Assembly (NCBI GenBank): GCA_018524725.1
Contig: JAEUWP010000160.1
Coordinates: 1 to 45,231, forward strand
From: Podaxis mareebaensis
Taxonomy: Eukaryota; Basidiomycota; Agaricomycetes; Agaricales; Agaricaceae
Direction: 5' to 3'
DNA: 45,231 nt
The notes beneath the pieces are model-generated. The model did not search any database. It had not been told where the DNA came from and saw nothing but the letters and a program-made list of their open reading frames with translations. This document shows, piece after piece, positions 1 through 23,969 of the stretch (the first letter of the stretch is position 1; every line of letters begins with the position of its first letter). The translations under genes and the position numbers were made by a program.

Positions 1-998
1 TCTTTCTTCTTGACGAAAAGAACAGGAGCACCATGAGGGGAAGTGGAAGGGCAAATAAAACCAATTGACAGGTGTTCATCAATGAACTCCTGGAGCACTT
101 CTAGCTTGACCTGTGACAACAAATAAATTGTTCTGACAGGGGGCGATGCACCTTCCTCAAGATTGATGTGAAGATCGAAGGGTCTGTGAGGAGGAAGGGA
201 ATCAGCACGGGCCTTGCTAAAAATGTCAGCAAATTCATGATATTCCTCAGGAACATTTGAAAGGTTGATGGTGTCTGTGGGGGAAGTGGAAGCAGCAGAA
301 ACAGTGGAATGGAGGTTGAGGGTGAATCTATATGATCCAGGGAGGTGCGAAGCATGCATGAATGCAGTGGCATTGATGAGATGAATGTCTGGCTTCATGA
401 GGGAAGGTGAATCAGGAACAGGAACAGAGACCAGATCTAGAGAGGTACCCAAATCAGGAACTGGAGATCCAGTGGAGACAGAGGACACACAAACAGGGAC
501 AGATGGGGCAAGATCCAAACTGCCAGGGGTACAGAAAGTGATGTGGCCTGTGACCCAATCAATCAACAGATTGTAGCGGGTGAGCCAGTCATGTCCAAGA
601 ACCACTGAGCAAGCTGAATTGAGCTGGGTAACATACAGGACAAGATTCATTGATTCACTGGATTCAAAGTTTACAGGGATAGTAGCAGATTGCATAATAA
701 AGGAGTTAGACGAGCCATCAAACAGACAAAGTTCAACTGGAGGAATGGACAAGGTAGGAATTCCAAATTTGCACACCAGGCTGGAGTCAACGAAACAGTG
801 AGTGGAACCACTGTCAATGAGTGCAGATATGATGAAGGGAGAAGAGGAATCAGAAGAGAGAAGCAAAGGAGAGGTGAAGGAGACATAGAGTGCATGCAGA
901 TTGGAAAGAGCAGATGTGTTGAGTTGGAAACTCTCTGGTGCACAGAGGAGCCCAACACAGTCCCCAGTCTGTGCTGAGTTCTGAGGACTGCTCACTAT
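1..998 (-). CDS. Ty3/gypsy Pol, N-terminal part: aspartic protease and start of reverse transcriptase
   Basis: I checked every codon of this frame from 998 to the edge and found no stop. About 60 codons in is the retroviral-type aspartic protease motif ALIDSGSTHCFVDS, with the catalytic Asp codon at 813-815. About 90 codons later is a GHDWL motif, the usual second landmark of gypsy proteases. Near the edge the frame reads PHGAPVLFVKKK, the conserved entry to gypsy reverse transcriptases, preceded by an acidic EFADIFSKARADSLPPHRP-like linker. There is no independent start codon next to the gag stop. The frame is reached by a -1 shift on seven A residues, so the product is expected as a Gag-Pol fusion that the protease then cleaves. 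The gene continues past base 1. Confidence 0.87.
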   Translation of the reverse strand, partial: MVSSPQNSAQTGDCVGLLCAPESFQLNTSALSNLHALYVSFTSPLLLSSDSSSPFIISALIDSGSTHCFVDSSLVCKFGIPTLSIPPVELCLFDGSSNSFIMQSATIPVNFESSESMNLVLYVTQLNSACSVVLGHDWLTRYNLLIDWVTGHITFCTPGSLDLAPSVPVCVSSVSTGSPVPDLGTSLDLVSVPVPDSPSLMKPDIHLINATAFMHASHLPGSYRFTLNLHSTVSAASTSPTDTINLSNVPEEYHEFADIFSKARADSLPPHRPFDLHINLEEGASPPVRTIYLLSQVKLEVLQEFIDEHLSIGFICPSTSPHGAPVLFVKKK

Positions 999-1004
999 TT
1001 TTTT
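958..1004 (-). promoter_or_regulatory. Programmed -1 ribosomal frameshift site between gag and pol
   Basis: On the minus strand the gag frame ends TCA AAA AAA TAG, so the heptamer A AAA AAA (1004-998) sits exactly in the X XXY YYZ register directly before the gag stop (997-995). Slipping back one base gives ATA GTG AGC and enters the open pol frame. After a 7-nt spacer (997-991) the sequence CAGTCC (990-985) can pair with GGACTG (963-958), a 6-bp stem with a 21-nt loop; an alternative inner hairpin CACAG/CTGTG is also possible. Slippery heptamer, spacer length and downstream stem match the standard -1 frameshift arrangement. Function is inferred. Confidence 0.78.
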
Positions 1005-2341
1005 GAGCCCTCTGGAGGGGGACCCAAAGCAGTGGGAGCATCTACCTGGGCCTTGCAGCCCTTAGGCTTTCCTTGTGGAGCAGATTTGCAGGGGCACATG
1101 TCAACCTTGTGACCACCTTCACCACAGAAAAGGCAAAGTTTGTTGTCGATCCAGTGCTGATGTTCTTGTGGGGTTAACTTGCTGTCTTTTCTGAGCTTGT
1201 CTGTGAGGGGTTTAGATGGTGGGGATGATGTGGATGGCTTGTTGGGCACAGGTGACGAGGATTGTTCAGGCTTGGTAGGCTGGGAACCCTTATTGGGTTG
1301 CAACAAGTTGTTGCTGGCAGGTTTGTTGTTAGACTGCAGGTTCTTGCCTTTGCCCTTGTCTGACTGGTTAGATGATTCTTGCTTGTTGGTGGTGTTTCTG
1401 GAATGATTCCCTGTGTGAGACTTCTCATGTTGATGTTCCCAATAATGATTGTCAATCTGCATGGCAGTGGCATGCATGTCAATGTAGGAAGTGGGTTTCC
1501 CATTCGGGAGAGAGCAGAGGGAATCTTGGATTTGATCTAGAAGACTGCAGTAATAGCAGTGACAGAGGACAGAGTCAGGCCATTTAAGGAGACCAGCAAG
1601 ATGAGCGAATTTGACATTGTATTTGGAGATATGGGTGCCATGAGCCATTGTAAGATTTTCAAGTTCCTTGGCAGCCTTGTTGACCAGATCAAGGGCCCCA
1701 AAAGTGTCAGTCAATTCCTGTGAGAATAGTGTCCAGTCTGAATACCAAGTGATCTGGTTCCAGTCAGGTTCCATGTCGAGCATGGTTTGGAACCACTGCT
1801 GGGCTGATCCCAAGAGGTAGGAGATGGTGAACATGACTTTAGTGGTCTCGGAGCAGAACTGGTGCAGGTTGGTATTGAAATAAATGTGGCATTGGAAAAG
1901 GAAGTCGTTGAGTTTGTAGGGCTTGGTACTGTTGAAGACGTCAGGTTCTTTTGCCTGAATCTTGTTGGGACAGATAACTGGGGGAGGAATGGACTGATTC
2001 CACACACTAGACTTGATACCGTGGGCCAGGCATTCCATTACATGGAGGAAGCACTCTCCTTCATTATCAGGAGGGCCCAGGGAATTACCATTGCCGTCAC
2101 CATCATCAGGATCATCAGGGCCATCAGGGTTGCCATCATCATCTCCAGGGTTATTGGGTGGGTCATTTTGGTTACCCCCATCGTTCTGAGCATCACCTCT
2201 GCCTTCAGGGTCACCATTGTCATCAGGGGGACCCATGTTGGCAGGGGGATTGAAGTACTTGAGGTCATTGTGGCTCTCATCTGGACACTCAGAGGACTGT
2301 TTCTGGTCAGGTTCTTCACCTTCCATGAGTGGGTCCTTCAT
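995..2341 (-). CDS. Ty3/gypsy Gag polyprotein with CCHC zinc knuckle
   Basis: A 448-residue structural protein that would form the particle packaging the element's RNA. The first 90 residues are an acidic Asp/Pro/Asn/Gly-rich linker. The central region (about 120-290) has the usual gypsy capsid pattern, with FLFQCHIYF and YLLGSAQQWF motifs. A Ser/Asn/Lys-rich stretch (about 300-390) leads to the zinc knuckle CLFCGEGGHKVDMC (CX2CX4HX4C) near residue 405. The ATG at 2341 is the first Met after an in-frame TGA about 33 codons upstream, so the start is well constrained. The stop TAG abuts the slippery A heptamer used to reach pol. Confidence 0.9.
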   Translation of the reverse strand: MKDPLMEGEEPDQKQSSECPDESHNDLKYFNPPANMGPPDDNGDPEGRGDAQNDGGNQNDPPNNPGDDDGNPDGPDDPDDGDGNGNSLGPPDNEGECFLHVMECLAHGIKSSVWNQSIPPPVICPNKIQAKEPDVFNSTKPYKLNDFLFQCHIYFNTNLHQFCSETTKVMFTISYLLGSAQQWFQTMLDMEPDWNQITWYSDWTLFSQELTDTFGALDLVNKAAKELENLTMAHGTHISKYNVKFAHLAGLLKWPDSVLCHCYYCSLLDQIQDSLCSLPNGKPTSYIDMHATAMQIDNHYWEHQHEKSHTGNHSRNTTNKQESSNQSDKGKGKNLQSNNKPASNNLLQPNKGSQPTKPEQSSSPVPNKPSTSSPPSKPLTDKLRKDSKLTPQEHQHWIDNKLCLFCGEGGHKVDMCPCKSAPQGKPKGCKAQVDAPTALGPPPEGSKK

Positions 2342-2554
2342 GTTGGTGTCCAGGGTGGTCTGTGATGCAGAGCAAGTGCAGGATTCGGTAAAGCAAGGGG
2401 AGGAGGTACCAAAAGCAGGAATAATAGGGCAACGTCAAGAGGTAGAGGGCAGAGGATGACTGGGGATTGCAACATTCTGCGAATGAGCAGTTGTGCGAGT
2501 GACAGTTCCAGTAGGCATAGAAAAACAGTACTGGGGGTTGGAATCAGAATATAC

Positions 2555-2995
2555 TGTTATGTTCTGGACAGTTCCAGAGATTCAGAGAGTGGACCCTTGG
2601 CCTCAGCATATGTGCTGTGCCCCTCCAATACTGCACAGGGTCTGATTCAGCTGCTTGGAACTGCAATGGAAGATAATGGGAAATATAGGAAATGTCAGAG
2701 AACAGAGAGGGGAGTGAGTCCCGAAGGTTTGGATGATGAACAGGAGACTAGGAAAGGTAAATGAAGTTGATATTCTGATTGGGGAGTGAGATACAAGGTA
2801 GTTATGCTTAAGTACATGTCAGAAAGTGATACAGATAACTAACTAAGAAACCAGGAGACAAAAGAAGTGGATTTACAGGTAAAGAACATTTGCATATTGG
2901 AACTACAAACAGAAGAATGGAGAACACACAAAAATGCAAATCATAGTATAAGGCAAAGCAGAAAGTAAAGTAGACATTGGGGAATGAAGATAACA
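2555..2995 (-). repeat. Candidate 5' LTR of the gypsy element
   Basis: This 441-bp segment starts TGTTAT and ends ATAACA, a perfect 6-bp terminal inverted repeat with TG..CA ends. It lies where the 5' LTR of a minus-strand element should be. The second LTR is outside the window, so it cannot be confirmed by comparison. I could not recognise a clear tRNA primer binding site next to 2555, so the exact boundary is tentative. Confidence 0.4.
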
Positions 2996-3161
2996 ATTTC
3001 TGGGAGTGCTGATAGATGTACAAATGGACACCACACATTGCATTGGTCGTAATCAACCATGTGAGTGCATCTGCCCATTCAGACAATGGGACAGGGGATC
3101 CTGACAAGGGAACGCGAGCAGAGGGAGTGGGAAAGCATTGGACTTGATCGGAATCAGATCT

Positions 3162-3623
3162 TCAGATTTTTGGAAATGAGCATGGGTTGTAAGCATGGAA
3201 ATGGACACTTGATGCAGACTTGACACCCAACAGAACTACTTGTTGCAAACTCCATAATGCCTGCTGACTGATTTGCATGCTTGGAGCTGGAGTACCTGGC
3301 CCCTCATCATTGTCTTCCTTGTCTGGACTCTCCACCCACTTACTCTTCGACTTCTTCTTAGTCACCTCCCTCACAGCTGCCTGACTACCTTCTGACTCTT
3401 GATGACACTTGTTCACATCTCCACTTTCACTTGCATTGACTTCCATAGCTGCTGGAGACTCATCTGGGAACCCAAGCATTGCATGTTGCTCCAGGGTGAG
3501 CTTGCTGAGGTTGACAGTGACTTGGCTGGGCTGGGAAGGCATGAGGGTACAAGGGGAAGGCTGGAACAAAAATTTTTTTGATGAGTTCTGACCTGGATAC
3601 ACATTTTGATGACTCCTGATCAC
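3162..3623 (-). CDS. Hypothetical protein, probable repeat-derived ORF
   Basis: An open frame of 153 codons that I do not recognise. It contains a Lys/Ser-rich basic patch (KKKSKSKW) followed by an acidic stretch (DKEDNDEGPG), with no visible domain or membrane segment. Its codons almost completely avoid CpG, like the flanking mobile-element relics and unlike the genes to the right. It therefore more likely belongs to an element than to a resident gene. It could also be a chance open frame. Confidence 0.25.
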   Translation of the reverse strand: MIRSHQNVYPGQNSSKKFLFQPSPCTLMPSQPSQVTVNLSKLTLEQHAMLGFPDESPAAMEVNASESGDVNKCHQESEGSQAAVREVTKKKSKSKWVESPDKEDNDEGPGTPAPSMQISQQALWSLQQVVLLGVKSASSVHFHAYNPCSFPKI

Positions 3624-3746
3624 TTAGACTTTGTTTCAGGGGAAAACTATGCTTGGTAGGTGCTACTGCAATTCTGTAATCTCTTGGACTGTTGAAACAA
3701 GGATTTTAGATATAGTCACCATGAAAGCCAGCTGTATAAATGGGCA

Positions 3747-4322
3747 TTGTCATGGACTACATCATGTACCAGTACCTTGCCTATGGCCAACAAGGACTTA
3801 GGGAGGCACTTTTATATTGCCTCATATGGCATCTGGATCCAGGCAGCACCCAACATGATCATTGCATGGAAACCAGGTGATTGGCATGGAACCAGCTTGC
3901 ATGCCCTCTGTGGAGCTGATTCTTGTAACAACCCAGTCTTCCACTAGCATGGCATTGCTTTTGTCACATTGTTGCATATCAAAGAGGTCTGGCTCAAGTA
4001 TCATGATAAGGTTTTATTGCATACTCAAGCACTCAAACAATTGTTTATTGAAAATGGCAACATCTATAATGAAGATGGCAGTGATAATCAAGATCTCCCA
4101 AAGACCACTCATATGCCTGACTACAGCACCAGTCCTGCAGAACCTGCTGCTCTAGTACCAGCTTCACACCAAGCCAAGTGCAAGATTGCAAAGCACCAAG
4201 CTGCTCATCCATATTCACCAAAATGTGCTCTTGTTGGAAATCATGATTCTGCATGGCAAGTGGTGCAGATCACTGACCATGCTCTGCAAAGTGGGCTGGG
4301 GTTGTATTGTAGCACACTATAG
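3747..4322 (+). pseudogene. Relic coding frame, possibly a decayed 2-oxoglutarate/Fe(II) dioxygenase-like fragment
   Basis: One reading frame runs through this segment and is broken by a single in-frame stop at 3945-3947. The part before the stop contains YGIWIQAAPNMIIAWKPGDW and then HGTSL; the part after continues HGIAFVT and KEVWLKYHDK. A PGD-type turn, then a His-Gly, then a short beta segment loosely recalls the C-terminal strands of the TET/JBP-like dioxygenases that are expanded in mushroom genomes. I cannot show the upstream HxD motif, so this assignment is only a suggestion. CpG is absent here. The frame is certainly not an intact gene. Confidence 0.25.
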
Positions 4323-4676
4323 TCTCCAGTAGAATTAGTCTGTAATCTTTTTGTGAGCATGAACTTCAGGGATGTATTACTATATGCTAAAACAATATCT
4401 GGCTCTCCAGGACCCATATAAGAGGGAGCAGAAAAGATTTGCTTGTTTCACATCTGATAATCACTCAATTCAGATTGCAGAAACTGGGGAACTACAATCA
4501 CATGATTGCATTGAGGTCAGTATGCTGAGGAGCCTTGAAGACTACACATAAGAAACAAGGAGGCGGGAGTTCTTTCATGCTTTTATCTTGCTCTTGCTAT
4601 GGAACTTGATGATGATGCATAGTGCCCTGGATGCAGTAGGCAGATAGACCCAAAGCACTGCAGCATCTGAGTTGAG
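4323..4676. other. Gap, 354 bp
   Basis: No supportable gene. The sequence is CpG-poor (one CpG near 4564) and otherwise unremarkable. Confidence 0.5.
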
Positions 4677-5585
4677 ATGCCCCTGCCATTGGATGTCCCT
4701 GCTAGAAAGGCCCTCAAGTACTATATGTATCTCACAGTTGCCTGCCCAGAACCCCTTGGTCTGTACTGCTTGAAGGAATGCAAAGAACTGGATGTGCAGG
4801 TGTCATTGATATCTATTGAAAAAGAGGGTTTGAAGCTGCCACTTGTTTCTTCTGAGCCCTTGGCCATGGCTAGCTTGGCAGCTGCATGTGAGCAGCTGTC
4901 CTCTCAGTCTGCCAGCAATCACCAATGTCACTCTCCCACAGTTAGCAAACTTGCAAAGATCTATAATTTCCCTCCACCACCACCTCCTGCACTTATTTCC
5001 TTTGGGGATGCAATTGCATGCAAGCTGTATTATGCAGTCAATGCTCCCATTCAAGCCAGCAATGGTCTTATTATGGCTGGCTGCTACTTGCAGAAAATCT
5101 GCTCCCTGCTCAAGCCTCAGGCTCCTGAGCATCCCTGCAGCCCTAATGAGCCTATCAAGACTATTCCAGGCTGGAATGATGGATCCATTGCTTGGAGATC
5201 CCAACTTTACAACATTCACCTCTCTCTACCTATTCCACAAGTCAAGAGAAGGCCAACCATTTGCTCTCAGCTCAGCAATGCCTCCATCCCCCTCCAGAGC
5301 ACTCCTGTTCTGCCTTGCAAAAATGTGACAATGATTAATCAATTTGCAAAGTCCCTCATTCACCAGCCAAATACCATTTCTCATTCTGCCCCTGCTCTCA
5401 AACAAGAGAGACCTCTGCTTCCACCAGGTGCTGAGGGCAAACTTCTTGTTCCCAATGTCAAACTTGCAGTCCACATTAGTGCAATGGCCTTGGGCAACAC
5501 AAAGAAAAATGTTATGAACTTAGTAAATGTTTGCTATACATTTATAAATTATGTTTTTGACTTTATTTATCTTTGTTTTATCTGA
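4677..5585 (+). CDS. Hypothetical 302-residue protein in repeat-rich DNA
   Basis: A long open frame that I do not recognise. It is rich in Pro, Leu, Ser and Cys. A PPPPPP run lies near residue 100, and a hydrophobic, Phe/Tyr-rich C-terminus (about 280-302) may be non-coding A/T-rich DNA read through. No catalytic motif or clear membrane protein pattern is visible. I read every base of the ORF and saw no CpG dinucleotide at all, which ties it to the surrounding methylation-decayed repeats. That it stays open despite this suggests either a recent element protein or chance, since loss of CGA codons lowers the number of stops created. Function unknown. Confidence 0.3.
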   Translation: MPLPLDVPARKALKYYMYLTVACPEPLGLYCLKECKELDVQVSLISIEKEGLKLPLVSSEPLAMASLAAACEQLSSQSASNHQCHSPTVSKLAKIYNFPPPPPPALISFGDAIACKLYYAVNAPIQASNGLIMAGCYLQKICSLLKPQAPEHPCSPNEPIKTIPGWNDGSIAWRSQLYNIHLSLPIPQVKRRPTICSQLSNASIPLQSTPVLPCKNVTMINQFAKSLIHQPNTISHSAPALKQERPLLPPGAEGKLLVPNVKLAVHISAMALGNTKKNVMNLVNVCYTFINYVFDFIYLCFI

Positions 5586-6505
5586 AAGCTTTAGTCTGTA
5601 CTTTGTTAGTTTTCTATATCTCAAACAATAGTTATGTAACCTCAAAGTCATATGACATTTACAGATTGATAAGCTTTCTATTCTATTCATAGAAAGAAGT
5701 CTTTCTATCTATTCTTAGTAGTATTAGACTTCTTTCCAGTTCCAAGTCAATCTCCAAGTTGAGCCTCAGTACCTGAAGAAGCTTCATTAAATAGAAGTTC
5801 TTCTCATGACATCTCACAGTAGATATACTTAGATACACTGTCCATAGGTATATAAGCTGTTGACACTAACAAGTAGAAAGCATCATTTCTACTTGGTTAG
5901 GTGGAGACTTGAATAGAAGTCTTTATCAACTATAAGTGATATGATTTAAGTTGTTCTCATAATCTTTATCACTCTAAAAGTTGCTCTGAGTCTTCTATTG
6001 AGGAAATAGATGTATTGTGCAACTATGTTATAAGTTATCTTGATGCATTGACCTTATTGTACAAGGCCAGTGCTTAAAGGTAGCTAATCTGTTAGTACAC
6101 AAGAAGTCTCCTTTGATACAATCTGTGAATACATATCAGGCCTCTTTATGGACTGAAGTGGCCTCACTATAACAAAAAATCAAAGCTTCCTGTCCCCTAG
6201 CAATTGTTTGTACAGTAGCAAAATTGCTGCTATGCATGGCTATCCCCAGTTTGCTGTTTCACCTCCTCAGGGCTCAAAATCTGGTGGTGCATATGACTTG
6301 TTTGCATGTTGATCTTGCCTTCCATTGCAGAGTCCATAGCTTGTTCTTGGGCATGTAATAGTGTCAAAATGTATGATGTGATGCCATTCCCACCTAAGAA
6401 GGAGAAGTGCACTTGAATCTCTATTTCTAATGGGAATGTGGTGCACACTGAACATGGTCAAGATACAGCAACCCTGCAAGAGGCTATTCTTATTCCCCAC
6501 CCCTA
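5586..6505. other. Non-coding A/T-rich gap with one strong hairpin
   Basis: No gene is supported. The segment is A/T-rich and contains many short copies of TAGAAGT/ACTTCTA-like words in both orientations, which gives several small inverted repeats around 5,680-5,740. The strongest is annotated separately at 5866-5900. It may be the remains of an LTR or another untranslated element part. Confidence 0.4.
5866..5900. repeat. Near-perfect inverted repeat (hairpin)
   Basis: The left arm (CTAAC then AAGTAGAAA, 5866-5879) pairs with the right arm TTTCTACTTGGTTAG (5886-5900). This gives 14 pairs with one bulged base, around a 6-nt loop. The arm length is well above what the surrounding composition would give by chance. 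Its role is unknown. Confidence 0.6.
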
Positions 6506-6645
6506 CTAGCCCCTATCTGCACCTTGTGAATTGCATATCTGACCTGCATTAGCATCATCTGTTAGCAGGTGCACAAACTTCTTGGTCCCTGCTGCCCAAT
6601 GCTCACCAAATGTTCCTGCCTTCAACCACTTCTCATATCCAATGC

Positions 6646-6658
6646 AAAGCTCTTTGGG
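6646..6658. repeat. Target-site duplication, left copy
   Basis: AAAGCTCTTTGGG, identical to 8327-8339. Together they bracket the poly(A)-ended insertion, which is the usual signature of LINE-type target-primed integration. Confidence 0.85.
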
Positions 6659-8326
6659 TGCAGCCTTCCTCTTCCAGTAACCACCATCATCAGCAGTTAA
6701 ATACTCATCACTATGGACCATCACAAAGGCAAAAGCCCCTCTGTTGTTCCTGAAACCCCTCAGGCAGTCAAAGACCATGAATATGACTACCAGCAAGAAG
6801 TGGACACCCACAATTGTGTCTGGTTCAAATACATGACCATAGAAGAGGCAAATCAATATGGCATGTGCACTCCCTGCAACCCTGGTGGCTGGATCCCCTC
6901 TTCCCCTCCATGCCAAGAGTGGCAAAGAAACTCTTGGACACTATCCCCCACTCCTGCTATTGGGCAGTCCCAAAGCAGCCATGGCTCCTCCATGGAAGTC
7001 AACTTCAATTCAGCTTTCCCCCCACTTCCAGAGAAGGATTCTTCTCCTAGCACTCAAGTGACCCCCAAGGCCACTCCTTCCACTCTTTCCTCCAACCCCA
7101 CCCCTGCCAAGGTCAACAACAAAGAGGAAGAAGAAACTGCCTTGGGCATTCTCATGCAATTGTCCTGTACCATTAATGAGAGTGAGGACCTAGTTCCCTC
7201 TGCTGACTCTTACCTCTTTGCTGCCCTCTGTGACTTTATATTTATATTAGAGTCAAAGAATCTATTTGCCAATCAGACTCCCCCCTCAGCCTGGTGTGCC
7301 CCCTCTCTGGCAGACAGTATTACTGCTCTGCTAATTGAGGCATGCAAACTGCATGTGTCATTGCCTTCTCTACAGGCAGTGTCCCCTCCCAGGTGGATCT
7401 TGACACTATCACTGCCTCACTCCCCTCCATGCTCAAAAGCACCTCCATCACCTTCCCTGTGTCCCAATCTTTCATAAAGATCATGGATGTTCCCTTTTTC
7501 ATAGTTGATGGCTTCACCCTCTTGGCTGATCAAGTCAAGACTGAGGCCTCAGCCTCCTCCTTCCCCACTTCTGACATGCATCATCCATGCATCATTCACA
7601 ATTCTGCCAAGTCTGATACTGCCACTGTGTGGATTGACTTGATTGACTCTCAGTGCAGCACCCTCACTGCTTCCCTTATCAACAGGCACATCATGATAAA
7701 TGGTGTGTCCTGTCTCATCAAAGGGGCTCATGCCCACACTGGCAGTGTCAGTGTTGCTGGTGCTGGGGTCATCCTTCTGATGCCTGCCATGCTCACACAC
7801 CCAGGTGTCCTCTCTGTGGGGGACCTCACTCCAAGTTCTCTCACTGCTCCATGGCTAGGTGTCACAAGGGCAACCCCAAAGCAACTCCCCTCATTCCTCC
7901 CACTCTGGCAGGTGATCCATGCCCTCACTCTCCTCAGTGCACTAATTGTTCTGGTGCCCATGCCTCCAATGACTGCCAGTGCCCATACTGGTGACATTTG
8001 TTTGACTGCAAGTGGCTTCAAGGTTGATACCAATGCAATGTGGCCTCTGCTTCAGCCAAGAAAGCCTCCACTCCTTGGGGCAGGGGTCATAAGGGTTAGT
8101 CAAGACAAGTGTAAGTGGGCATGTCAATATATTCTGTATGGACTCTTCTGTTTTCATATCTATGTGTTCAACTTTGAACTTTTTCATTCATGTTATTTGG
8201 GGCACCTGTTTTCTTTTCTTTCTTTCTTTCTCTTTCTTTTTCTCTTAACCATTGGGACTGCTATCATGCACCCTTGTGTAGTAGACTAGTTCTATTGCAA
8301 TAAATGTGGATTTTTTTTAAAAAAAA
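6659..8326 (+). mobile_element. Non-LTR retroposon carrying only ORF1 (half-LINE-like)
   Basis: A 1,668-bp insertion bounded by 13-bp direct repeats. It ends in AATAAA (8299-8304) followed 14 bases later by an 11-A tail that merges with the right duplication. The body holds an ORF1 (Gag-like) frame beginning 54 bp from the left end, then a pyrimidine-rich 3' region (about 8,205-8,250). There is no endonuclease or reverse transcriptase. The 5' junction is clean and ORF1 has a proper start, so this looks like an insertion of an ORF1-only RNA, comparable in layout to mammalian HAL1 elements, rather than ordinary 5' truncation, which would have kept ORF2. It must have been mobilised in trans. Confidence 0.75.
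6713..7994 (+). pseudogene. LINE ORF1 (Gag-like, zinc knuckles), frameshifted
   Basis: The protein binds element RNA in functional relatives. Three frames must be joined. The N-terminal half (6713 to about 7360) begins MDHHKGKSPSVVPETPQ and includes SMEVNFNSAFPPLPE. The middle (about 7360-7755) has the family motif NSAKSDTATVWIDLIDSQ and IKGAHAHTGS. The C-terminal part (about 7755-7994) has the Cys/His cluster CWCWGHPSDAC, RCPLCGGPH and CTNCSGAHASNDC. The final TGA (7992-7994) falls where relatives, as I remember them, have Arg (a WRH pattern), so CGA to TGA decay is likely; similar-looking residues continue after it. Two frameshifts plus this stop make it non-functional. Confidence 0.72.
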
Positions 8327-8329
8327 AAA
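8299..8329 (+). terminator. Polyadenylation signal and genomic poly(A) tail of the retroposon
   Basis: AATAAA at 8299-8304 is followed by a T run and an A run of 11 (8319-8329). The last three A residues are shared with the target duplication. Confidence 0.75.
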
Positions 8330-8339
8330 GCTCTTTGGG
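8327..8339. repeat. Target-site duplication, right copy
   Basis: AAAGCTCTTTGGG, identical to 6646-6658, immediately after the poly(A) tail. Confidence 0.85.
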
Positions 8340-8857
8340 CATCCTGCACCTGCAGGAATAGTTCACTTCCTCACTCAGGCTTTGCACTCATGATTGCAAT
8401 AATGCCTGCTGCTTAATCTCACTGCATATTTTGACCCTGTAGCATATTTGGCTGTAGAGCTGCATGGAAACACTACTGCATATGATAACTCCTGTAAATA
8501 TATTGATATTTAGGCATTGAGCCAGGAGGGCCTTTGCTAGCATTCATGCATCTTGCTGCAACAAGTTGTGGCAGAGTTGCAATGGTGCTGCTTCTGGACT
8601 GCATGCCATTGCAGCCCCATACAGATCAATTATGTGTCACAACCCTTTGAGCTTTGTTGCCTTCCATTTTGACACTCCACCTTGCATTTCACTGTGTTTT
8701 AGCAGTGGTTATAACTCTGATGGCATTACAATGTTCTTCAGAAATTTCTGACATAAGGGTATAGAAATGACCAAATATATCTGTGCACCTGACAATAGAG
8801 GGAACATCACCTGGTGCCTGAACAATATTCATCTGTCACATAATCACAGTCCTCCTG
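8340..8857. other. Gap, 518 bp, old repeat-flanking DNA
   Basis: Apart from the upstream end of the interrupted minus-strand frame (to 8387) no gene is supported. The sequence has no CpG that I could find. Confidence 0.4.
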
Positions 8858-9174
8858 TGTTGGAACACAAGTGCATACTGAGTCAGGTGCTAGACCAGGA
8901 ACAAAGCAGCTGATGAGACATTAGGTTATGGACTCAATATGACATAGTAGATAGATGTTTTTTTTCTCCTAGTTAGCCTCCTATATTGTAGTTTATATAC
9001 ATACAGTAGAAGTGTGTTTGCCTCAGCCCTCATACCATCAACAAGTGACTGAGGTAAGCTGCCACTTAATATCCTCAATACTTCTTACTTATCACTCATA
9101 GTCTACATTGTTTACAGGTATATAATATATAGCCCTTGTACTGTCAATGAGTGACTGAGTCTACATTGTTTACA
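8858..9174 (+). repeat. 5' LTR of the copia element
   Basis: It starts TGTTGGAACACA, a common copia LTR beginning, and ends TTTACA directly before the primer binding site. It includes a TATATACATA stretch near 8,993 that could serve as a TATA box. A 29-bp segment (9025-9053) recurs at 9131-9159, and a 20-bp segment (9100-9119) recurs at 9158-9177. The partner LTR is lost, so the 5' boundary rests on the TGTTGG motif alone. Confidence 0.6.
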
Positions 9175-9190
9175 GGTTATGGGCCCCAGC
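9175..9190 (+). other. Primer binding site complementary to the anticodon arm of initiator tRNA-Met
   Basis: GGTTATGGGCCCCAGC immediately follows the LTR. It matches the complement of the eukaryotic initiator tRNA-Met anticodon stem-loop, GGTTATGGGCCCAGC, with one extra C. Priming by a cleaved half of tRNA-iMet is established for Drosophila copia, and the same internal site is used by many copia-class elements. Confidence 0.82.
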
Positions 9191-9236
9191 TGCTGTTAAA
9201 CAAGTACAGTTTACTGCCATTTGAACCCATGCCAAT

Positions 9237-10418
9237 ATGTCTACCACTGTCAATGACATGCTACCTTCCACTGTGCCCATGTTAGAACAGTCAGGAGTGA
9301 ACTGGGCTATATTCCAGTTGTGTTTCCAGATGGCCATTCAGGGTAAAGGCCTGTGGGAGCACTTTGACAGAAGTAAGGTCTGGCTGTCACAACAAGTCCC
9401 CTCCATATCTGTTTCTCCAGCATCCCTGCCATCTCCTAGCAAGATGAAATCTTCAACTACAGTGGCTTCTACAGCTGCCAGCCCCCCAGCCTCCCAAGTC
9501 CTGCTTGGTACTCCAACTGAGATCACTGAATGGGACCAATGCAAGAGCATTGCAAAATCACTCCTGGCCCAATGATTGCCCAACTCAACCCTGATGATAG
9601 CTGCTGGTCAGTCAACAGTTGTGAAGATGTGGACAACAGTAGTGAAGGAATATACTTACAAGGGGGCCTTCTCCCAGACCTGACTTCATTGTGATTTCCT
9701 GTCCTCTCAGTGTCCAAAAGATGGAAATGTACACACTTTTCTCAATACCCTGAGAGCTTGTCATGCTGAACTTGATGCCATGGGTGTTTCCATCAACAAT
9801 GATGACTACTGGAGCACCATTATACAGTTGTTACCTTGGTCACTCTCGAGCTTTGCATTGGGTCAGCTCATGTCTGCAACCCTTTGAGGTGAGACCATTG
9901 ATCCAGACTTGCTGATTGTCATTATCAGTGATGAGTATGATCAGATCCAGTCAACTCACTCAAAGGGAAATGGGAAGGGAGATGGGACAACAAATAGTGA
10001 TGATGCTATGGTGGTTGAGTCTGCAAATAAGGGGAAGGGGAAGGGGAAGGAGAAGGAGAAAGGCAAGGGACCATGTTGGGAATGCAGAGGACTGCACATG
10101 AAGAAAGCATGCCCTCAGAAGAAGGAGAAGCAGGCAAGTGGTCCATCTCAACCTGCAGCCAGCACAAACATTGTAGACAATGATGTAGTCTTCTCTTTTG
10201 AAGATGTCAAGGACACCCATTCAATCCCTGCACTGATCCCTGTCCACATGGATATTGGCAAAGTTGAAGAGGATTTCTTCAATGTGACCAATGATGAGTT
10301 TGATGAAACTGATGTTAATTACATGAAAGAACACACAAGCAAATGCACAACTGTCTCTGAACCTGCAACAACTGATCAAGTTAGCCATGTTCAAGATGCC
10401 CAGAAGTCAGAGGTGTGA
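9237..10418 (+). pseudogene. Copia gag with zinc knuckle, broken
   Basis: The frame opening at 9237 contains the Gag motif NWAIFQLCFQMAIQGKGLWEH and stops at 9573-9575. A homologous continuation in another frame reads AMWDAVVKEY-like, then KEYTYKGAF and FLNTLRACHAELDAMGV (about 9,630-9,800). The last part (9909-10418) carries a Gly/Lys repeat, KGKGKGKEKEKGKG, and the knuckle CWECRGLHMKKAC (CX2CX3HX4C) near 10,070. A functional copia has one continuous frame here, so at least two lesions exist. Confidence 0.6.
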
Positions 10419-11928
10419 GTCGAGCTTTTCAACTCAGGTGCATCACATCATATTACCCCCTACTGTGATGTATTCATGAATTTTGAGGCCACAGCCCCTC
10501 ACCCCCTCCAAGCTGTGAATCAGAAAAATTTCTGTGCAACTGGTAAAGGGGAGGTAGTCATTGATCTGCCAAATGGTGTTGATATGTCTAAACTGTGACT
10601 TACTGAAGTCTTATATTCACCTGAGGTTGGCTACACACTCATATCTATTGGCCATCTAGATGAAGGTCACCTTCTCCAATGGGAAATGTGTTATTCATGA
10701 TCCAGGTGGTACTCATGTGGCAGAGGTTCCCAAAAATCAAAACAGACTGTACAAGATAGTCCATGAGGTTCCAACAGAGGTGAATGCTGTTGGCAAGCCA
10801 CTCACCTTAGATCTGCTACATTGTTACCTTGGCCATATATCAGCCAAGTCTGCTAGACAGCTAGTCCACAATGGCCTGGTCACAGGATTGAAGTTGGACA
10901 ATAGTGGTCCAGCAGACTTCTTCTGTGATGCCTGTGCATATGCGAAAGCAACACATCTACCCATTGTGAAGGAGCAAGAGGGGGAGAGAGTGAAGGCTGT
11001 GGGTGAGGAGGTTCACTTGGATGTATGGGGCCCTGCACAAACAACAACCAAGAAAGGCTATCATTACTATGTCACCTTCATGGATGATTACTCCCACTGG
11101 ACTCACATTGATTTTCTTGAAAAGAAGTCAGAAGTCTTTGCCATGTACAAGAATTTTGAAGCTTGGTGTGAAACCCAGTTTGGCATGTGCATTAAGTCCC
11201 TACACTCTGACAGAGGAGGCAAGTACATATCTGCTGAGTTTTGTCAGCACCTTAGGTCCTGGGGTACAGAATCTAAACTCACCATGCATGACACCCTGCA
11301 ACACAATGGTGTAGCAGAGTGGTGAAATCACACAATTGTCAAATGCAGTCAGGCATTGTTATATGGATGCCCCATACCCAGGTACCTGTGGGCAGATGCA
11401 GCAGCACACAAAGTGTGGCTGATGAACCACACAGGGACAAAAGCACTCACTAACAAAACTCCCTTTGAGGTGTTATACAGCAAATGGCCAAATCTTAGTG
11501 GCCTTCATGAGTGGGGGGAAGAAGTATGGGTACATGATGATAGTGGTGATAAGTGGGATGGGCATGTGAAGAGAGGGCATTGGCTGGGGTATGACTCTGA
11601 GAGCAACAGCTCCTGGATCTGGTTCCTTGACACTGGCATTGTCAGTATCAAGCAGAACTTCCATTTCATTGACAGTAGTCATGTTAGTCTTGAGGGGGAG
11701 CAAGATGTATCAGCTAGCAAGACCAGAAGCAACTGCACACTCACCTTGAATACCTCAACTACTCCCACAGATCAAAACATCTCATCACCCATTGCAGAGC
11801 CAGACCCACCAGATACTGACAATGCTCAAAACCCACCCCTTGAAGATTTTGCACCTGATGTGCTACCAGAACCTCCCAGCAGCAATCACCTGCATGTACC
11901 AGATGCAGAACCCAAGCATCCACATTGA
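10419..11928 (+). pseudogene. Copia protease and integrase, broken
   Basis: The protease motif at about 10,430 reads FNSGASHHITP where the family has DSGAS, so the catalytic Asp is replaced by Asn. The frame then meets a TGA at about 10,597 inside an otherwise conserved LTEVLYSPEVGYTL region and shifts frame near 10,657. Integrase (10660-11325) keeps the HH-CC zinc region (LHCYLGHIS ... CDACAYAK) and the DDE core: HLDVWGP, SLHSDRGGKY and QHNGVAEW. A TGA follows directly after AEW (11323-11325). The C-terminal integrase domain continues to 11928 with the GKxW-like GHWLGYDSES region and a Pro/Asp-rich linker. Confidence 0.77.
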
Positions 11929-11978
11929 AATTGGAACCCTAGTCCCAAGGCCCATGATATTCTTGAGGGCAAGCTGTC

Positions 11979-12970
11979 ATGGTTGCTGAAGAGACAGATT
12001 GGGAAGAGGTCTGGGCATTTGTAGTGGAGACCAAGGACATGGAGGCATTGGAGCTAACAAGTCTGAAGGATGCCATGGGAAGAGCTGATTGGGAGTTATG
12101 GAAGAAGGTGATGGAAGAAGAGTTGAAGATGTTGGGGGAAGCAAGAATGTGGGAACTCATTGATCTGCCAATCAGTGTCAACATAGTTGGCTGTAAATGG
12201 GTATTCAAAGTGAAGGACACAGCTGGAAACATTGTTTGATACAAAGCCCACCTTGTCACACAGGGATTCTCCCAGGTACCAGGTGTTGACTATTTCAATA
12301 CATATGCCCCTGTTGCCCACCTCTCATCAATACAGGCTGTTCTTGCCATCATGGCTGCTAGGGACATGGAGGTGCATCAAATTGACATCAAGGGAGTATA
12401 CCTAAATGGGAAACTCACTGATGATGAAGTAATCTTTATGTGTCAACCTCCAGGCTTCCCAAATACTATGTTCCCCTGCTGAGTATATTGCCTCAAGAAG
12501 ACATTGTATGGACTTAAACAGTCCAGACAATGCTGGTATCAATGTCTATGTGAAATTCTAGTCAATGTACTGGGATTCACATGGTGTGATGTCAACCACA
12601 GCATTTTCTTCAAGATCATCACCAACAACCTCATCATCATTTTAGTTCACATTGATGATTGCATGTTTGTCACAACCACTCTGAAGCTCATTGTGTGGGT
12701 AAAAAGGGGGATAGCTGACCAGGTGGAGATCATGGATCCTGGTGAAATTCACTGGTTACTTGGGATCAAAGTCAGAAGGGATAGAGAGAAGAGAACAATA
12801 TCTTTGTGCCAATGTTCATACATTGACACCTCACTCAGATGTTTTGGACTCAAAGATTCAAAGCTGCTCAGTATCCCAATGGACCCTGCCACTAAGCTCA
12901 CCTCTGAACAATCACCAAAATCCACTGCTGACATTGCTCACATGGCATGCCTCCCATACCAAGAAGCTCA
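11979..12970 (+). pseudogene. Copia reverse transcriptase, broken and truncated
   Basis: Reverse-transcriptase landmarks are easy to follow in one frame: NIVGCKWVFKVK, then a TGA at 12237-12239 where the family has Arg, then YKAHLVTQGFSQVPGVDY, APVAHLSSIQAVLA, the first catalytic Asp in QIDIKGVYLNG, a second TGA at about 12,479, LKKTLYGLKQS, and the active-site box HIDDCMF in place of the usual YVDDM. DPGEIHWLLGIKV and IPMDPATKL follow. Similarity stops at about 12,970 (MACLPYQEA), before RNase H. The stops make it non-functional. Confidence 0.82.
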
Positions 12971-13433
12971 TCAGGAAAAATGTCATTTCCTTATCCAGTC
13001 AACTAAGGTGACTATAAGAAGCAGTGAGATACAGCAAGATTCACTAAGGTCTAATAAGGTAACCAGAGTCATAAGATAAAATAAGAGTGGATAAGAGTAT
13101 TTAAGAGGAAATAAGAGTGGTTCTGCACGCATTTTCATAAACTCGTGCTGTATTTGTCTTTAATAAGAATCTTATTGTTCTTATTAGGTGAAACTGGATG
13201 ATACTGTGGCCTTATAGGACCCCTATCAGCAAATACCAGGGTCTCATTAGAGTGTATGTGCTACACATTTTCAGCGAGATTTCAGTAAGCGAAATTAGAC
13301 TCTTTTCCAGTGAGACTCACTCCACCCAGCCCCACCAGACCTTTGGTGTGCTGTCATGTTCACCAGTGGAGCTGTTAGCATATTCCTTGTATTATATCAT
13401 CATTATTATATAATATGGTGAGTGCAACAGACA

Positions 13434-13504
13434 GGAGTTGAACTCTTGACCTTTTGTCATCACACCCATCATGACCAGCTTAACCACTACACCAAAATGC
13501 CATT
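13434..13504 (-). repeat. tRNA-derived SINE head or tRNA pseudogene
   Basis: On the minus strand, GGTGTAGTGGTTAAG (13493-13479) fits the RNA polymerase III A box, and GAGTTCAACTCC (13445-13434) fits the B box GGTTCGANTCC with the CG changed to CA. Spacing of about 35 nt is right for a tRNA promoter. I could not form an acceptor stem, and a body of unrelated, partly A/T-rich sequence follows. A SINE head is therefore more likely than a working tRNA gene. Confidence 0.6.
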
Positions 13505-14280
13505 CTGAAATTGCAATAGAATTATATTACACCTGAGTGGCAAGGACTCTGTGCATCACATAAGCAGTCATCACATGTCGCCATGGCTGTCATCAGCCCT
13601 GTTGCCATCATGTATGAGCGAGGGAAGCAAAGGGCCAAAGCCCAAGCTCCCCAGTGTCCACCAGAGCTGTCATTCCCAGGCCAACCACCCTGTATAATGT
13701 TCTTGATAAGGCTAGTACTTTTTATGTAAACCCTTTTGCAGATAGATTCCACTACTCTACAATATATTAATATGGCTTCGCACTGTGGGCCAAGTTGCAC
13801 TAATTGGCCAGCAAAATAATTCCGAATTTATTGTGCTGAGTAAGGACCAATAAGGTTACATTGATTTTATTCTCAGGAGTTGGCCTGAATAAAAGCATAT
13901 AAGATCAGTGGGTCACTTACTAGCGCCTTATTGACCTTATTTAGATGAATGAGGAAATGACGTTTTTTCTGATGTTTATGTCAAGTCTCAAGTCTCAAAC
14001 CACATCGGTCATTTTTCTGCACAAATCAAGGCTCCAAGGTAAGCAGCTCACCAAGGATCGCATGGCTTAGCTTACAATGGGTAACCCGTTCATCAGGAGT
14101 CCGCACTGTGTTACGGGCAACTGGACTTTGGCATATGACTGCCGCCAGCACATAAACTAACCTTATCAGAACTTCCGCAGCGACATCAACACTCACGTAC
14201 ATAATTACCAAGCATGACCTCTAGAGGAAGGAAGCCACGTTTAAGCTCAAGGTGTCCCTTGTACAGCAGGCGCTCCGAAG

Positions 14281-14286
14281 TATAAA
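14281..14286 (+). promoter_or_regulatory. Possible TATA box of the MYND gene
   Basis: TATAAA ends 49 bp before the proposed start ATG at 14336, a little close but plausible for fungi. Confidence 0.35.
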
Positions 14287-14335
14287 CCTGGTACTAACGC
14301 CTCGAGGCACCGCATTCCACCCACCACCACCCCTC

Positions 14336-17300
14336 ATGTCCCACCCAACTTTTTGGCCGAAAAAAACGTTCTTCTATCCGATTGGCAATACACCTCCTGT
14401 CTGTCTCACAGACCATCTACCTCCGGAGGTGGATGCTAAGATCCTTCTTCTTGGGTGCGGAGACCCCAGAAACATTCTGTACACCGTCAATGTGGATCAT
14501 GGCGCTTGTGAATCTCTCCAGTTTTCTTCCCCAGCCTTGATCAACTCAGATGTTGAATAGCAACCCGCTTGATGGACATTACTTGTTGTGACTGGGAGCC
14601 TGCAATCATAGGTAGCTAATGATCTTCCGTTATCCGCTCGACTTACGCTAAGGCGCTTATCATAGCACGAGACGTCCTTCTCTTGACTTTCATCGCCGAC
14701 AACGTTGGATCCAATCGCCTCTCCCAATACTGGAACATCTTCTACGATCTTTTCCTCGGCAAAGAAGCCGCATCGTTGCTGAAGGAGCAATGCATAAAAT
14801 TGGCTGGTTTTGCGACGGATTTGGCCACGTGGAATTCCTCTTCATATGGCCGTTTTCTCAAATTCTTGACGGAGGACTCGCTGAACGAAGCGCGCCGCCA
14901 TTGGGACTCTTATGTTGAAACTCTCAGTTTACCCGATCCGAGACAGAATGAACTGAAGCAAATGTTCTTATCGCAGATGAAGAAAAAGATGGTTCAAGGG
15001 TCCGATATGACATCGATCTACGCCGCTGCTCCATTAAGCTTTCAATATCCATCGGAATCACTCAAGACGTATACTCGATACTGGGAATCCGGTGTCACAA
15101 GCCCCAACGTCGACCCTACCCAAATCAATCCGACGTTTTTGTTTTCTATGGCTGGGCGCAATTTCAACCTCCACTATGGGACGGACCTCTGTTCGTCATT
15201 CCATCTCGCATTGGCCCTGACCAAAGTCACGTTCGACGGTGCGAAAGCTTCCACTCCTGCGAAGACTGAGAACGAAGTGTGGACGGAATGTCGCACGCAG
15301 TTTTCGCGGTGGTCTATAGCTTTTCACAAAAAAGTTGGGGCGTCTAATACCCAAACACGAATCATAATTCGATTTGTGGTTGGGGACGCGCTCGCTTTTT
15401 GTGATGGCTTGAAGCTGTGTCGAGTTGGCGACTTCACACCCTCGGTCTATATTTCGGCCTGGGGAGCCTCTAAATTCTCCTTCCACGACAAGTCAATGCC
15501 GACCTCTTTCAATGTCATCGACTCGTCCAACTTGTCTGACCATCTTGGCTTGTTAAACATCCTTGTTGCCACCATTCCTCTCCTCCAGAAGAGTCCATAT
15601 GCTGTCCTGCATACCAATTCCTTGTTATCATACAAAAACCATCCGACGCAGAGAAGTGCCATCGAGGAACGAGCGCTTCTGGATTTTCCGTCCCTGGCGC
15701 TCTTTCTCGGTATCACCCCTATCTGCTACTCTTCCGGATTGACCTTCCGCAATGGCTGTGAAAGTGCCAGCTTCGCGATGATGGCCCAAGGACGCCATTA
15801 TGAACGGATTTCCTGGAAGTTTTCCGATTTCGCTCACGCCAAATGGGACAACATGCTCACCCAGCGGAGACACGAGATCCGCTTCAACTCCGTAGAGCTC
15901 GCTGACAAACTATTTTCCGTGTACTTGAATATGTTCGAGAATGAAAACTTTGGGTCGTTATTCCATCGATTGCAAGTTGGAGATACGAGTCTCACCACAA
16001 TGCAAAACCCTCATTATCACAGGCAATCGTTCGTTCGCTTCCTCAGCCTCATCCGCGCCGGTGATCAGGTCCAGACAGATTGGTCCCAGACCCTCGATCA
16101 TTTCATAGACCGTGTCACGACGAACAACTCCTTGCTTGTTGGTTCCAACAACTATCAGAATCTGTTCGCAGACCTTCACATGTGGGGTATCCACTCTGAG
16201 TCGCCCTTCACTCCCGGTTTCGTTACAGCTAGATATGGCTCAAGGCCTATTCCCTTCCAGGAGTGGGATACCATTCCCCCCGTTGTCTGCATCGTTCTCA
16301 AGGTACCTCGTTCGGCACTCAAGTCACTCGAGGAGCTGCACGAAGACGAAGTTGGACATCCCGTCTTCGAATGCGAAACATACACCAAATTTCACAATTC
16401 ACATAGTTCCGTCCGTCCCATCTTTGGTGACATTGTGGATGCTCCTGGGTCCAAAGGTCGAAAGGTTATAGTCGAAGACACTCAAGGTCTGAACGGGAAC
16501 TCGCCGCTCATCGTCTCGTTCTACGTTTCAGCCTGGATCTTGGCGGAAGATCCTGATAATCTCGAAGTGGGCTTATGTCTCAAGAGTACTCCCAGAGATT
16601 CCTCCACGTTCCTATCCAAGTTGGGGCCCAGCCTTCGTCTTTTTTCGTCAAAACTCTTAAACCGAGACAACGTGTTCATTCTGCCCGAAAGGCCAGATAA
16701 TCAAGGAGAGCTTCGACGGGTTGCAACCATGAATGCACAGCCATCCCGGGTTAACACTGCTGCCACTCTTGGAGTAACGACCGTCTCTTTTAAAGGCGAG
16801 ACTGGAGATGCTATCTTATCCAAGAGATTGGATATCACGGCGTCGGGAGCAAAGGAGGCGTTGGTGAACAAGGCGCCTGTGGATGTAAAACAAACAGCTC
16901 CTTGTTGCATTGAATTTGCCATCAAGGATTATCGCTATTCGTTGTTTTATCCCATACCTGTCGATGGAACTCGATCGAAAACGCGGATTGCCAGAAAATC
17001 TTCATACGTCGAGGTGAGTGTTCAGAAGACCGCCCGTGCCCCAAAACTGACACCCCTCCCAGGTCGACGTGCCGGCTCGTACCTCCTCGCTCGCACAATT
17101 GACACTTCAACCATTCCCAATGACACTTAGCGCCAGCGGTAATACCGACCCAATCACCTCCTGGAATGCTCCATACATCAATCTCGACGCCTTCCCTACT
17201 ATCTCGCCTTCGGGAGATCTGAAATGGATCAACACGCACGCCGGGATGTCCCTTTCTCGCATCGAGCGGAGGCTGCAGCACACTGCATCTCCCGAAACCT

Positions 17301-18112
17301 GGGAACCCATCATGAACTTCAAAATGTCCATCGGCAACATCTTCCTTCGATACGCCAGTGACCAAGTCAAAATTCATGTCCTTCAGGATCCTAGCTTTTC
17401 AAGACCGCATGCGATTCTTCTTCTGTCGTCCATCCGCTTCGATTTGTCCTCGACCACAATCGTCGGAGATGCCGCGGTCATCATCCCAACATCTTCAGCC
17501 ATGAATGTAGCCTCTCGGTACCTGAACGGCAACGCTATAGCCACCGTCAGTACCTACGGCGAGGAAGTCCGTCTGTGGAAACATGCCCTTCCAGTACTTG
17601 CCGAACGTTGTCGTCAATGGCAGCACTTCCCAACTTGTGAATATAAGAAATATGGGCGTGTGCCTCGATCAATTGAGTACGACGACAGCCCGTTGTGCTC
17701 TTGTGGGAAGGGCAAGAACTTGGGCCCGCTGTTGAAGAATGATCGTTGGAAAGAGCTAGCTCCTTACGCAACGCGGATCGCACTTGGTCCAGTATTCCCG
17801 GTGCCGTATTTGGAGGATGTTACCGAGGGTTCTTTTGAGACTATGTTGCGTGGCTTTCCTAACTTTCCTGTTCCGGGTGTTGGAGCTGGCGGTCTCCCTG
17901 GTTTTCCTGGGTTTCCTGGTATACCTCGCCAAGAAGGTCGGGATAATGCTGTTGATGGCGCTCGTTGCAGTCGGTGTGGGGGCGGTGGTAAGCCGAAGCT
18001 ACTCCAGTGCAGTGCTTGCCAGACCGTGAAGTATTGTTCGAAGGATTGTCAGACGACCGACTGGAAGAGCCATAAACATGTTTGCAAGATGTTGGGAAAG
18101 AAATCGACCTGA
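14336..18112 (+). CDS. DUF4470 domain and MYND-type zinc finger protein
   Basis: Four exons: 14336-14507, 14561-14611, 14666-17013 and 17063-18112. The three GT-AG introns of 49-54 bp keep phase and join to 1,206 residues. The N-terminus (about residues 10-110) has the DUF4470 pattern: FFYPIGNTPPVCLT, ILLLGCGDPRNILYTV, then across the short exon DITCCDWEPAIIARDVLLL. A long helical middle region has no motif I recognise. Near residue 1,105 is a Gly/Pro/Phe-rich run (GGLPGFPGFPGIP). Residues about 1,158-1,199 are a complete MYND finger: CSRC, CSAC, YCSKDC and HKHVC. DUF4470 also occurs in the dynein assembly factor DNAAF3; fungal MYND versions have no established function. MYND fingers usually bind proline-rich peptides. 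The start at 14336 lies directly upstream of the conserved domain; an in-frame ATG at 14252 is less likely because of the TATA-like site at 14281. Confidence 0.85.
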
Positions 18113-23821: not shown

Positions 23822-23969
23822 CACTGAAAGAGAGTGAGGCAGAAGACGTGAGGCACGCGTTTGCGGCTAATTTGGGTTTGATCCTTCTCATCACTCACCA
23901 CAACATCGACTTCTCCTTTTTTTCTCTTCCTCTCTTCACTTAATCTCTTTCTATACCCACTCATAGAAC
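23822..23969. promoter_or_regulatory. Shared divergent promoter, 148 bp
   Basis: Only 148 bp separate the start codons of the coiled-coil protein (minus) and the acyltransferase (plus). The half nearest the acyltransferase is a long CT-rich tract (about 23,905-23,965), typical of fungal core promoters. No clear TATA box. Confidence 0.5.

What the first reader, a model, noticed from the sequence alone, without database searches (positions are those of the whole stretch)
3350..13950. Near-total CpG erasure across the repeat block with a sharp edge near 14.0 kb
Reading by eye I found one CpG (near 4564) between about 3,350 and 9,845, including none in the 909-bp ORF at 4677-5585, while CpG is common in every gene right of 14,000. 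This points to dense cytosine methylation of repeats and long-term deamination confined to the repeat block. The gypsy element at the left keeps some CpG and intact frames, so CpG content appears to order the insertions by age.
Basis: partly seen in the sequence, partly recalled or inferred. Interest (0 to 1): 0.75.

Follow-up and report, generated by a model that had tools for sequence, protein, structure and literature searches.

The report
Extreme CpG loss in mushroom transposons
In this mushroom-family genome, jumping-gene DNA loses its CpG letter pairs hundreds of times faster than its other letters change, and the loss fades near neighbouring genes; this fits DNA methylation followed by uncorrected decay, a known process that seems to run unusually fast here.

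Summary
In detail: one CpG (4564) in 3,350-9,845 (O/E 0.003) against O/E 0.94 right of 13,950, with TpG+CpA excess and normal GpC. The edge is a repeat boundary at 13,974. The window is a whole contig of a 37-Mb genome closest to Agaricaceae. The 909-bp 'ORF' is mostly a decayed copy of a host gene, so loss is not confined to transposons.

Copies elsewhere show the process. A CpG-full copy of the window's gypsy sits in CpG-zero DNA; sister copies keep 79, 61, 19, 4 and 0 of its 206 CpGs while differing at 0.8-7.4% of other sites. In 15 LTR pairs CpGs are lost ~500 times faster than a non-CpG site changes (~250 per cytosine; at least ~80 against non-CpG transitions), versus 5-20 published for vertebrates. 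Losses are strand-balanced and fit one clock; in two of two testable elements the LTR beside CpG-rich DNA is spared. This favours in-place CpG methylation plus poorly repaired deamination over RIP-like bursts; two DNMT1-RFD genes and a DNMT5 gene are present. CpG loss in basidiomycete transposons is known; the measured rate and edge protection are the additions. Methylation was not measured.

The parts
1..3225 (-). Gypsy (Ty3-like) element cut by the contig start; gag 995-2341, aspartyl protease frame 3-995, LTR 2555-3225; keeps 19 of the 206 CpGs of its CpG-full sister copy
3226..3637 (.). Piece of a second gypsy family (84-88% to copies elsewhere)
4580..5509 (+). Relic of a host gene (holds most of the 909-bp 'ORF'); the relative on C421 is an open 406-aa frame with relatives in Macrolepiota, two Leucoagaricus, Leucocoprinus and, weakly, Polyporus; zero CpG in 4677-5585
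5510..6174 (+). Dispersed repeat; its first 76 bases supply the end of the 909-bp frame
6221..6632 (+). Second piece of the C421-like segment
7357..8330 (+). High-copy repeat, over 30 copies or pieces at 72-82% identity
8488..8754 (+). Third piece of the C421-like segment
8857..12968 (+). Copia element, 5' LTR 8857-9174 (by match to the LTR of L039), truncated at the right; integrase and reverse transcriptase domains; CpG loss near saturation
12969..13974 (.). Short repeat, 95-98% to the five loci aligned; last repeat before genes; keeps 10 CpGs
13975..45231 (.). Gene-bearing, CpG-normal flank

Best explanation
The block is a heterochromatic domain whose CpGs are methylated by the host (two DNMT1-RFD enzymes and a DNMT5). 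Elements land CpG-full; methylated Cs then deaminate to T one at a time, on either strand, and the T:G mismatch is rarely corrected, so CpG becomes TpG or CpA about 500 times faster (per dinucleotide) than other sites change, until none is left. The mark covers the domain, including trapped host-gene DNA, and fades near active flanks, so elements next to genes lose CpG in the middle and spare the genic edge. Shown: CpG specificity, 50:50 strands, rate ratio, presence of the enzyme genes; shown on few cases: domain and edge effects. Inferred: methylation itself, spontaneous deamination, weak T:G repair.
For:: against CpG-full C415b, five sister copies lost 127-206 of 206 CpGs; in four of them all but 0-2 losses are to TG or CA, in C80 181 of 206 (TG/CA 92/95, 69/74, 69/57, 97/104, 92/89); non-CpG divergence 0.8-7.4%; no runs by strand; 15 LTR pairs, 151 CpG kept in both, 172 lost in one, 95 TG|CA discordant, 35 differences in 4,925 non-CpG sites; common ratio 501 (355-708); heterogeneity 20.8 on 14 df, p 0.11. 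A recount that would expose masked differences found none and gave 473 (335-750). Estimator checked by simulation. C415b (O/E 0.97) has zero CpG in the 1.5 kb fetched on each side; in two of two elements with one CpG-rich and one CpG-poor flank, one-sided losses spare the CpG-rich side (14 to 0; 9 to 1); strand balance speaks against few-round bursts. DNMT5 (E 4.7e-124 to 7r76), two DNMT1-RFD, one DNMT2. In another agaric, Marasmius oreades, repeats are heavily CpG-methylated (PMC9674265, passages).
Against: No methylation data for this genome. The ratio is far above the published 5-20-fold of vertebrates, so plain deamination needs poor repair, which I could not show: UNG and HhH-GPD matches at four places (three over cut-off) exist, and the TDG searches were weak. 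The older C80 copy has 18 TA of 206. TCG sites decay more slowly, unexplained. The edge effect rests on four copia insertions and the LTR asymmetry on two; a third asymmetric pair (C359, 14 to 6 one-sided) has flanks I did not fetch. The relic's relative on C421 is partly CpG-poor over the shared segment too, which homology targeting could also give.
Confidence: 0.75

Rival explanations
1. A RIP-like premeiotic process that recognises repeats and mutates CpG in bursts.
For: CpG-biased RIP-like mutation is reported in basidiomycetes (PMC4352252 and PMC4014442, passages); the very high rate resembles an active mutator; the C421 relative of the relic is also CpG-poor over the shared segment, though its upstream flank is as well (O/E 0.65, 0.63, then 1.17 downstream).
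Against: No strand runs, whereas 91.9% of Neurospora RIP clusters are one-strand (PMC7296669 passage); the strand balance has probability below 0.004 for 50 or fewer rounds and 0.03-0.05 for 200-400; near-identical LTRs of one element are hit unequally according to flank (two elements; these LTRs of 313-332 bases are shorter than the RIP length threshold that I recall, so the test is not strict); no RID-like methylase among the four PF00145 genes; TCG is spared, the opposite of the TpCpG bias of Microbotryum (PMC4352252 passage).
Confidence: 0.15
2. Enzyme-assisted conversion: a cytosine methylase or TET/JBP-type enzyme deaminates or oxidises CpG slowly in ordinary nuclei, giving the high clock-like rate. 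It overlaps with the best explanation in needing methylation.
For: Rate well beyond published vertebrate ratios (PMC12994199); seven Tet_JBP matches over cut-off.
Against: No direct evidence; unrepaired 5mC deamination would give the same products.
Confidence: 0.1
3. Assembly, base-calling or conversion artefact at methylated CpG.
For: CpG-only C-to-T changes are what conversion chemistry or miscalled 5mC would give (inference, no call).
Against: Symmetric misreading should give TA or mixed calls; TA is 0 or 1 of 206 in four of five copies; loss rises with non-CpG divergence and adjoining DNA differs fully in CpG.
Confidence: 0.02

Closest known systems
CpG C-to-T signature in basidiomycete transposons with Masc2/DNMT1 (Amselem 2015, PMC4352252; passages seen)
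   Same: CpG-only loss in transposons; DNMT1-class enzyme present, no RID found
   Different: There scored as share of biased copies in rusts and Microbotryum; here a rate per insertion from LTR pairs, strand balance and an edge effect
CpG hypermutation in Tricholoma matsutake (PMC6980582) and Rhizoctonia solani AG8 (PMC4014442); passages seen
   Same: CpG-biased C-to-T in Agaricomycetes, left open between RIP and 5mC decay
   Different: Here the burst model is tested and disfavoured; gene DNA is nearly untouched, unlike AG8
Vertebrate CpG depletion by 5mC deamination (PMC12994199; abstract and first part of Results seen)
   Same: CpG to TpG/CpA at methylated sites
   Different: Published excess 5-20-fold; here at least about 80-fold per cytosine, with complete local erasure; measures differ (polymorphism there, LTR pairs here)
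RIP in Neurospora (PMC7296669; passages seen)
   Same: Repeat-directed C-to-T decay
   Different: RIP is one-strand clustered and premeiotic, mainly at CpA (PMC4352252 passage); here CpG only and strand-balanced

Membership tests
CpG methylation-deamination of transposons | C-to-T only in CpG, on both strands equally | tested here: met
CpG methylation-deamination of transposons | CpG methyltransferases encoded | tested here: met
   DNMT1-RFD on C109 (28.5 bits) and C384 (22.4 bits, barely over the cut-off of 22), C109 matches DNMT1, DNMT5 on C147
CpG methylation-deamination of transposons | Surviving CpGs in the block are methylated | not testable with these tools
   no reads or bisulfite data
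CpG methylation-deamination of transposons | Gradual accumulation with age | tested here: met
   one ratio fits 15 pairs (heterogeneity p 0.11)
RIP | Strand-clustered mutation bursts | tested here: not met
RIP | RID/Masc1-class methylase | tested here: inconclusive
   none among the four PF00145 genes found, but the search is six-frame, exon by exon
RIP | Near-identical repeat copies hit alike wherever they lie (as I recall RIP) | tested here: inconclusive
   one-sided losses 14 to 0 (L044) and 9 to 1 (L040) by flank, against even losses in most other pairs; two elements, short LTRs
RIP-like process of Microbotryum | TpCpG preference | tested here: not met
   TCG decays less: p 0.001, 0.004, 0.047 in the three copies tested

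The most novel reading that the evidence does not exclude
This mushroom lineage runs a slow, one-strand-at-a-time CpG mutator on silenced DNA, some 5 to 20 times stronger relative to background than vertebrate CpG decay, either because T:G repair is blind in heterochromatin or because a DNMT or TET enzyme assists. CpG content then serves as a clock about 500 times finer per site than ordinary LTR dating, and its spatial profile is a fossil record of heterochromatin borders.
Probability: 0.4. Interest if true: 0.7.

Novelty: new member of a known kind. Interest (0 to 1): 0.5.

Why it matters
It turns a static CpG deficit into a measured rate. If the ratio holds in methylation data and in other agarics, CpG retention dates very young insertions that LTR identity cannot resolve, maps past heterochromatin borders, and makes the question of RIP versus 5mC decay in mushrooms testable. 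It also shows that CpG loss offers few routes to stop codons, so open frames in such elements do not mean that they are young or active.

Tried and rejected
GC-content explanation: rejected. CpA-type RIP: TpA not raised. Strand-patchy bursts: no runs. Loss of T:G repair as the cause: not decided. PF03167 gave one sub-threshold match, which by eye is an exon of UNG, so that search misses intron-split genes; E. coli Mug gave one match at E 2.3; HhH-GPD matches lie at four places, three over the cut-off, assigned by eye to NTH, OGG1, MutY and an EndoIII-like protein. A first alignment in mixed orientation gave meaningless values for three of five copies and was redone. In one search gap-split CpG columns left 2 and 3 apparent non-CpG differences in the C415a and C308 pairs; in pairwise alignment the counts are 0 and 0, and I take those to be CpG changes. 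Search for a BAH domain in C109 by Pfam and PDB failed; C384 has a BAH match below cut-off. The Ecl1 match of the relic's relative is below Pfam's cut-off. Rows dropped: pair L044 was left out of the main fit because its LTRs lie in different CpG contexts (with it 447, 473); C261, C80 and single LTRs were not used as pairs. No paper stating an LTR-pair CpG ratio for a mushroom was seen in the search listings, in a library without most subscription journals; a kingdom-wide RIP survey (PMC12543289) has no occurrence of 'CpG' in its main text. Two papers I wanted were not held.

Full report
Observation. The statistic was computed over the whole window. Between 3,350 and 9,845 there is one CpG, at 4564, O/E 0.003; over 3,350-13,950 there are 13, O/E 0.025; right of 13,950 O/E is 0.937. 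GpC is normal (1.05) and TpG+CpA is raised (1.52 vs 1.08), so the deficit is CpG-specific loss by transition, not composition. TpA is not raised, against CpA-type RIP. The edge lies where repeat homology ends, 13,974; the last repeat keeps 10 CpGs and a mild dip runs on to about 14,600.

Where it is. The window is a whole contig (C272) of a 36.95-Mb, 429-contig genome. The closest named proteins to the ORF at 14,683-17,130 are from Macrolepiota, Agaricus and Leucoagaricus (65, 61 and 57% identity), so an Agaricaceae mushroom or near it (family name recalled). In a sample of 20 one-kb pieces chosen by position, 16 have O/E 0.66-1.01 and 4 have 0.03-0.40.

Anatomy. 1-3225 is a gypsy element (gag and protease domains; LTR 2555-3225). 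8857-12968 is a truncated copia. 12969-13974 is a short repeat. The 909-bp frame is not a transposon ORF: 4580-5509, 6221-6632 and 8488-8754 match three pieces lying in the same order within 1,687 bases of contig C421. There the first piece lies in an open frame of 406 aa with 8 relatives in the protein search, among them Macrolepiota, two Leucoagaricus, Leucocoprinus and, at 26%, Polyporus; a weak Ecl1 match is below cut-off. Between the two copies, indels inside the shared part are multiples of three and non-CpG changes favour third positions (23, 34, 60 at positions 1, 2, 3); CpG-type changes do so somewhat less (25, 23, 36) (difference not tested). This suggests a gene that was under selection and later decayed. 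Upstream the window's frame has two stops. So CpG loss reached trapped host DNA too. It is, however, a duplicated sequence, and its C421 relative is itself partly CpG-poor (O/E 0.65 over the shared segment, 0.63 upstream, 1.17 downstream), so homology is not excluded as the cue there.

Sister copies. The gypsy has copies on C415 (two), C308, C234 and C80. One, C415b, has O/E 0.97, although CpG is zero in the 1.5 kb fetched on either side of it. Measured against its 206 CpGs, C308 keeps 79, C415a 61, the window 19, C234 4 and C80 0, with non-CpG divergence 0.8, 1.1, 1.4, 2.3 and 7.4%. Products are TG and CA in about equal numbers; TA is 0 or 1 in four copies and 18 in C80. Runs of TG or CA are as expected by chance in the five copies.

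Rate. LTRs of one element are identical at insertion (recalled). Across 16 LTR pairs of three families (the second gypsy family only over a shared piece of 196-279 bases), CpGs kept in both, lost in one, and discordant TG|CA give CpG survival without an outgroup. A joint fit to 15 pairs (L044 left out) gives a CpG loss rate 501 times the substitution rate of a non-CpG site (95% CI 355-708), or 251 (177-354) per cytosine; with L044 it is 447. A recount in which CG against anything but TG or CA counts as a non-CpG change found no such site and gave 473 (335-750). One ratio fits all pairs acceptably (20.8 on 14 df; p 0.11). Against all transitions at non-CpG C:G sites, an upper bound on CpH-to-T, the ratio is 112 (79-177) per cytosine. 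In simulations of 12 runs each the estimator returned medians 20, 100 and 562 for true values 20, 100 and 500. A study of 108 eukaryotes reports 5-20 for vertebrates and 1.5-4.5 for plants (PMC12994199); a word search of its text for fungi found none. Its measure is polymorphism-based, so the comparison is approximate.

Burst or clock. Replication passes on one parental strand, so a few rounds of mass deamination would leave copies dominated by TG or CA (inference). The observed balance (chi-square 1.66 on 5 df) has probability 0.003 or less for 50 rounds or fewer, 0.014 for 100, 0.034 for 200 and 0.054 for 400. Shared ancestry of some losses makes this approximate. In Neurospora 91.9% of RIP clusters are one-strand (PMC7296669).

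Place matters. Copia insertions L039 and L042, flanked by CpG-rich DNA on both sides, keep CpG at their ends and lose it in the middle (deciles; L039 ends against middle, given CpG in L040, p 6e-6, on counts). L044 and L040 have one CpG-rich and one CpG-poor flank: the LTR on the CpG-rich side has 15 CpGs against 1, and 19 against 11, that is one-sided losses of 14 to 0 and 9 to 1. Elements with CpG-poor flanks on both sides lose alike (C415a 18/21, C308 26/21). C359 is uneven too (14 to 6), with flanks not fetched. This reads as a domain effect; targeting by homology alone should hit both LTRs. Four insertions are few. Earlier decay of the source elements could contribute to the middle-versus-end pattern but not to the LTR asymmetry.

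Machinery. The nine PF00145 matches fall in four genes: C147 is DNMT5 (E 4.7e-124 to 7r76, listed there as DNA repair protein Rad8; that this is the Cryptococcus DNMT5 is recalled), C109 and C384 carry the DNMT1 replication-foci domain (C384 barely over the cut-off) and C109 matches DNMT1, C150 is DNMT2. A RID-type enzyme was not found, as reported for basidiomycetes (PMC5073141, passage). Seven Tet_JBP matches exceed the cut-off. The state of T:G repair is undecided. In Marasmius oreades repeats are methylated at about 0.75 of reads per CpG (PMC9674265, passage).

Frames. The gag and protease frames of the CpG-full copy have 780 codons, of which 2 are CGA. CpG loss therefore has few routes to a stop, and the window's two frames stay open although 187 of 206 CpGs are gone. 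Open frames are no sign of youth here. Stops do occur in these frames in C415a, C234 and C80; of the ten outcomes at the two CGA codons in the five copies, two are TGA and one TAA.

Verdict. CpG-biased decay of transposons in basidiomycetes is in print (PMC4352252, PMC6980582, PMC4014442; passages). What I did not find in the listings searched (named in Tried and rejected) is the rate from LTR pairs, the strand-balance test and the protection of genic edges in a mushroom. Methylation itself remains unmeasured.

Noticed in passing
C421:72941-76768 (L002): The relative of the gene relic is itself partly CpG-poor (O/E 0.65 over the shared segment and 0.63 upstream, 1.17 downstream); this could be a domain edge or a homology effect.
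   Followed up: partly
gypsy copies C415a, C308, window 1-3225: CpGs preceded by T decay more slowly than others (converted share 0.23 and 0.20 against 0.24-0.44 in C415a and C308; weaker in the window); cause unknown.
   Followed up: partly
gypsy copy C80 (L023) against C415b: Non-CpG G-to-A changes (81) exceed C-to-T (37) in window orientation, a strand asymmetry not seen at CpG.
   Followed up: no
window 37544-42735: Two diverged direct copies (76% over 1.9 kb) and short further matches near 43.7 and 44.8 kb.
   Followed up: no
window 26373-30041: Another pair of diverged direct duplicates (77-84% in pieces).
   Followed up: no
C93, C346, C162, C356, C100, C286, C90: Seven Tet_JBP matches over cut-off, four of the seven with stops inside; perhaps transposon-linked TET/JBP genes as reported in fungi (PMC12730594, start of abstract in listings only).
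   Followed up: no
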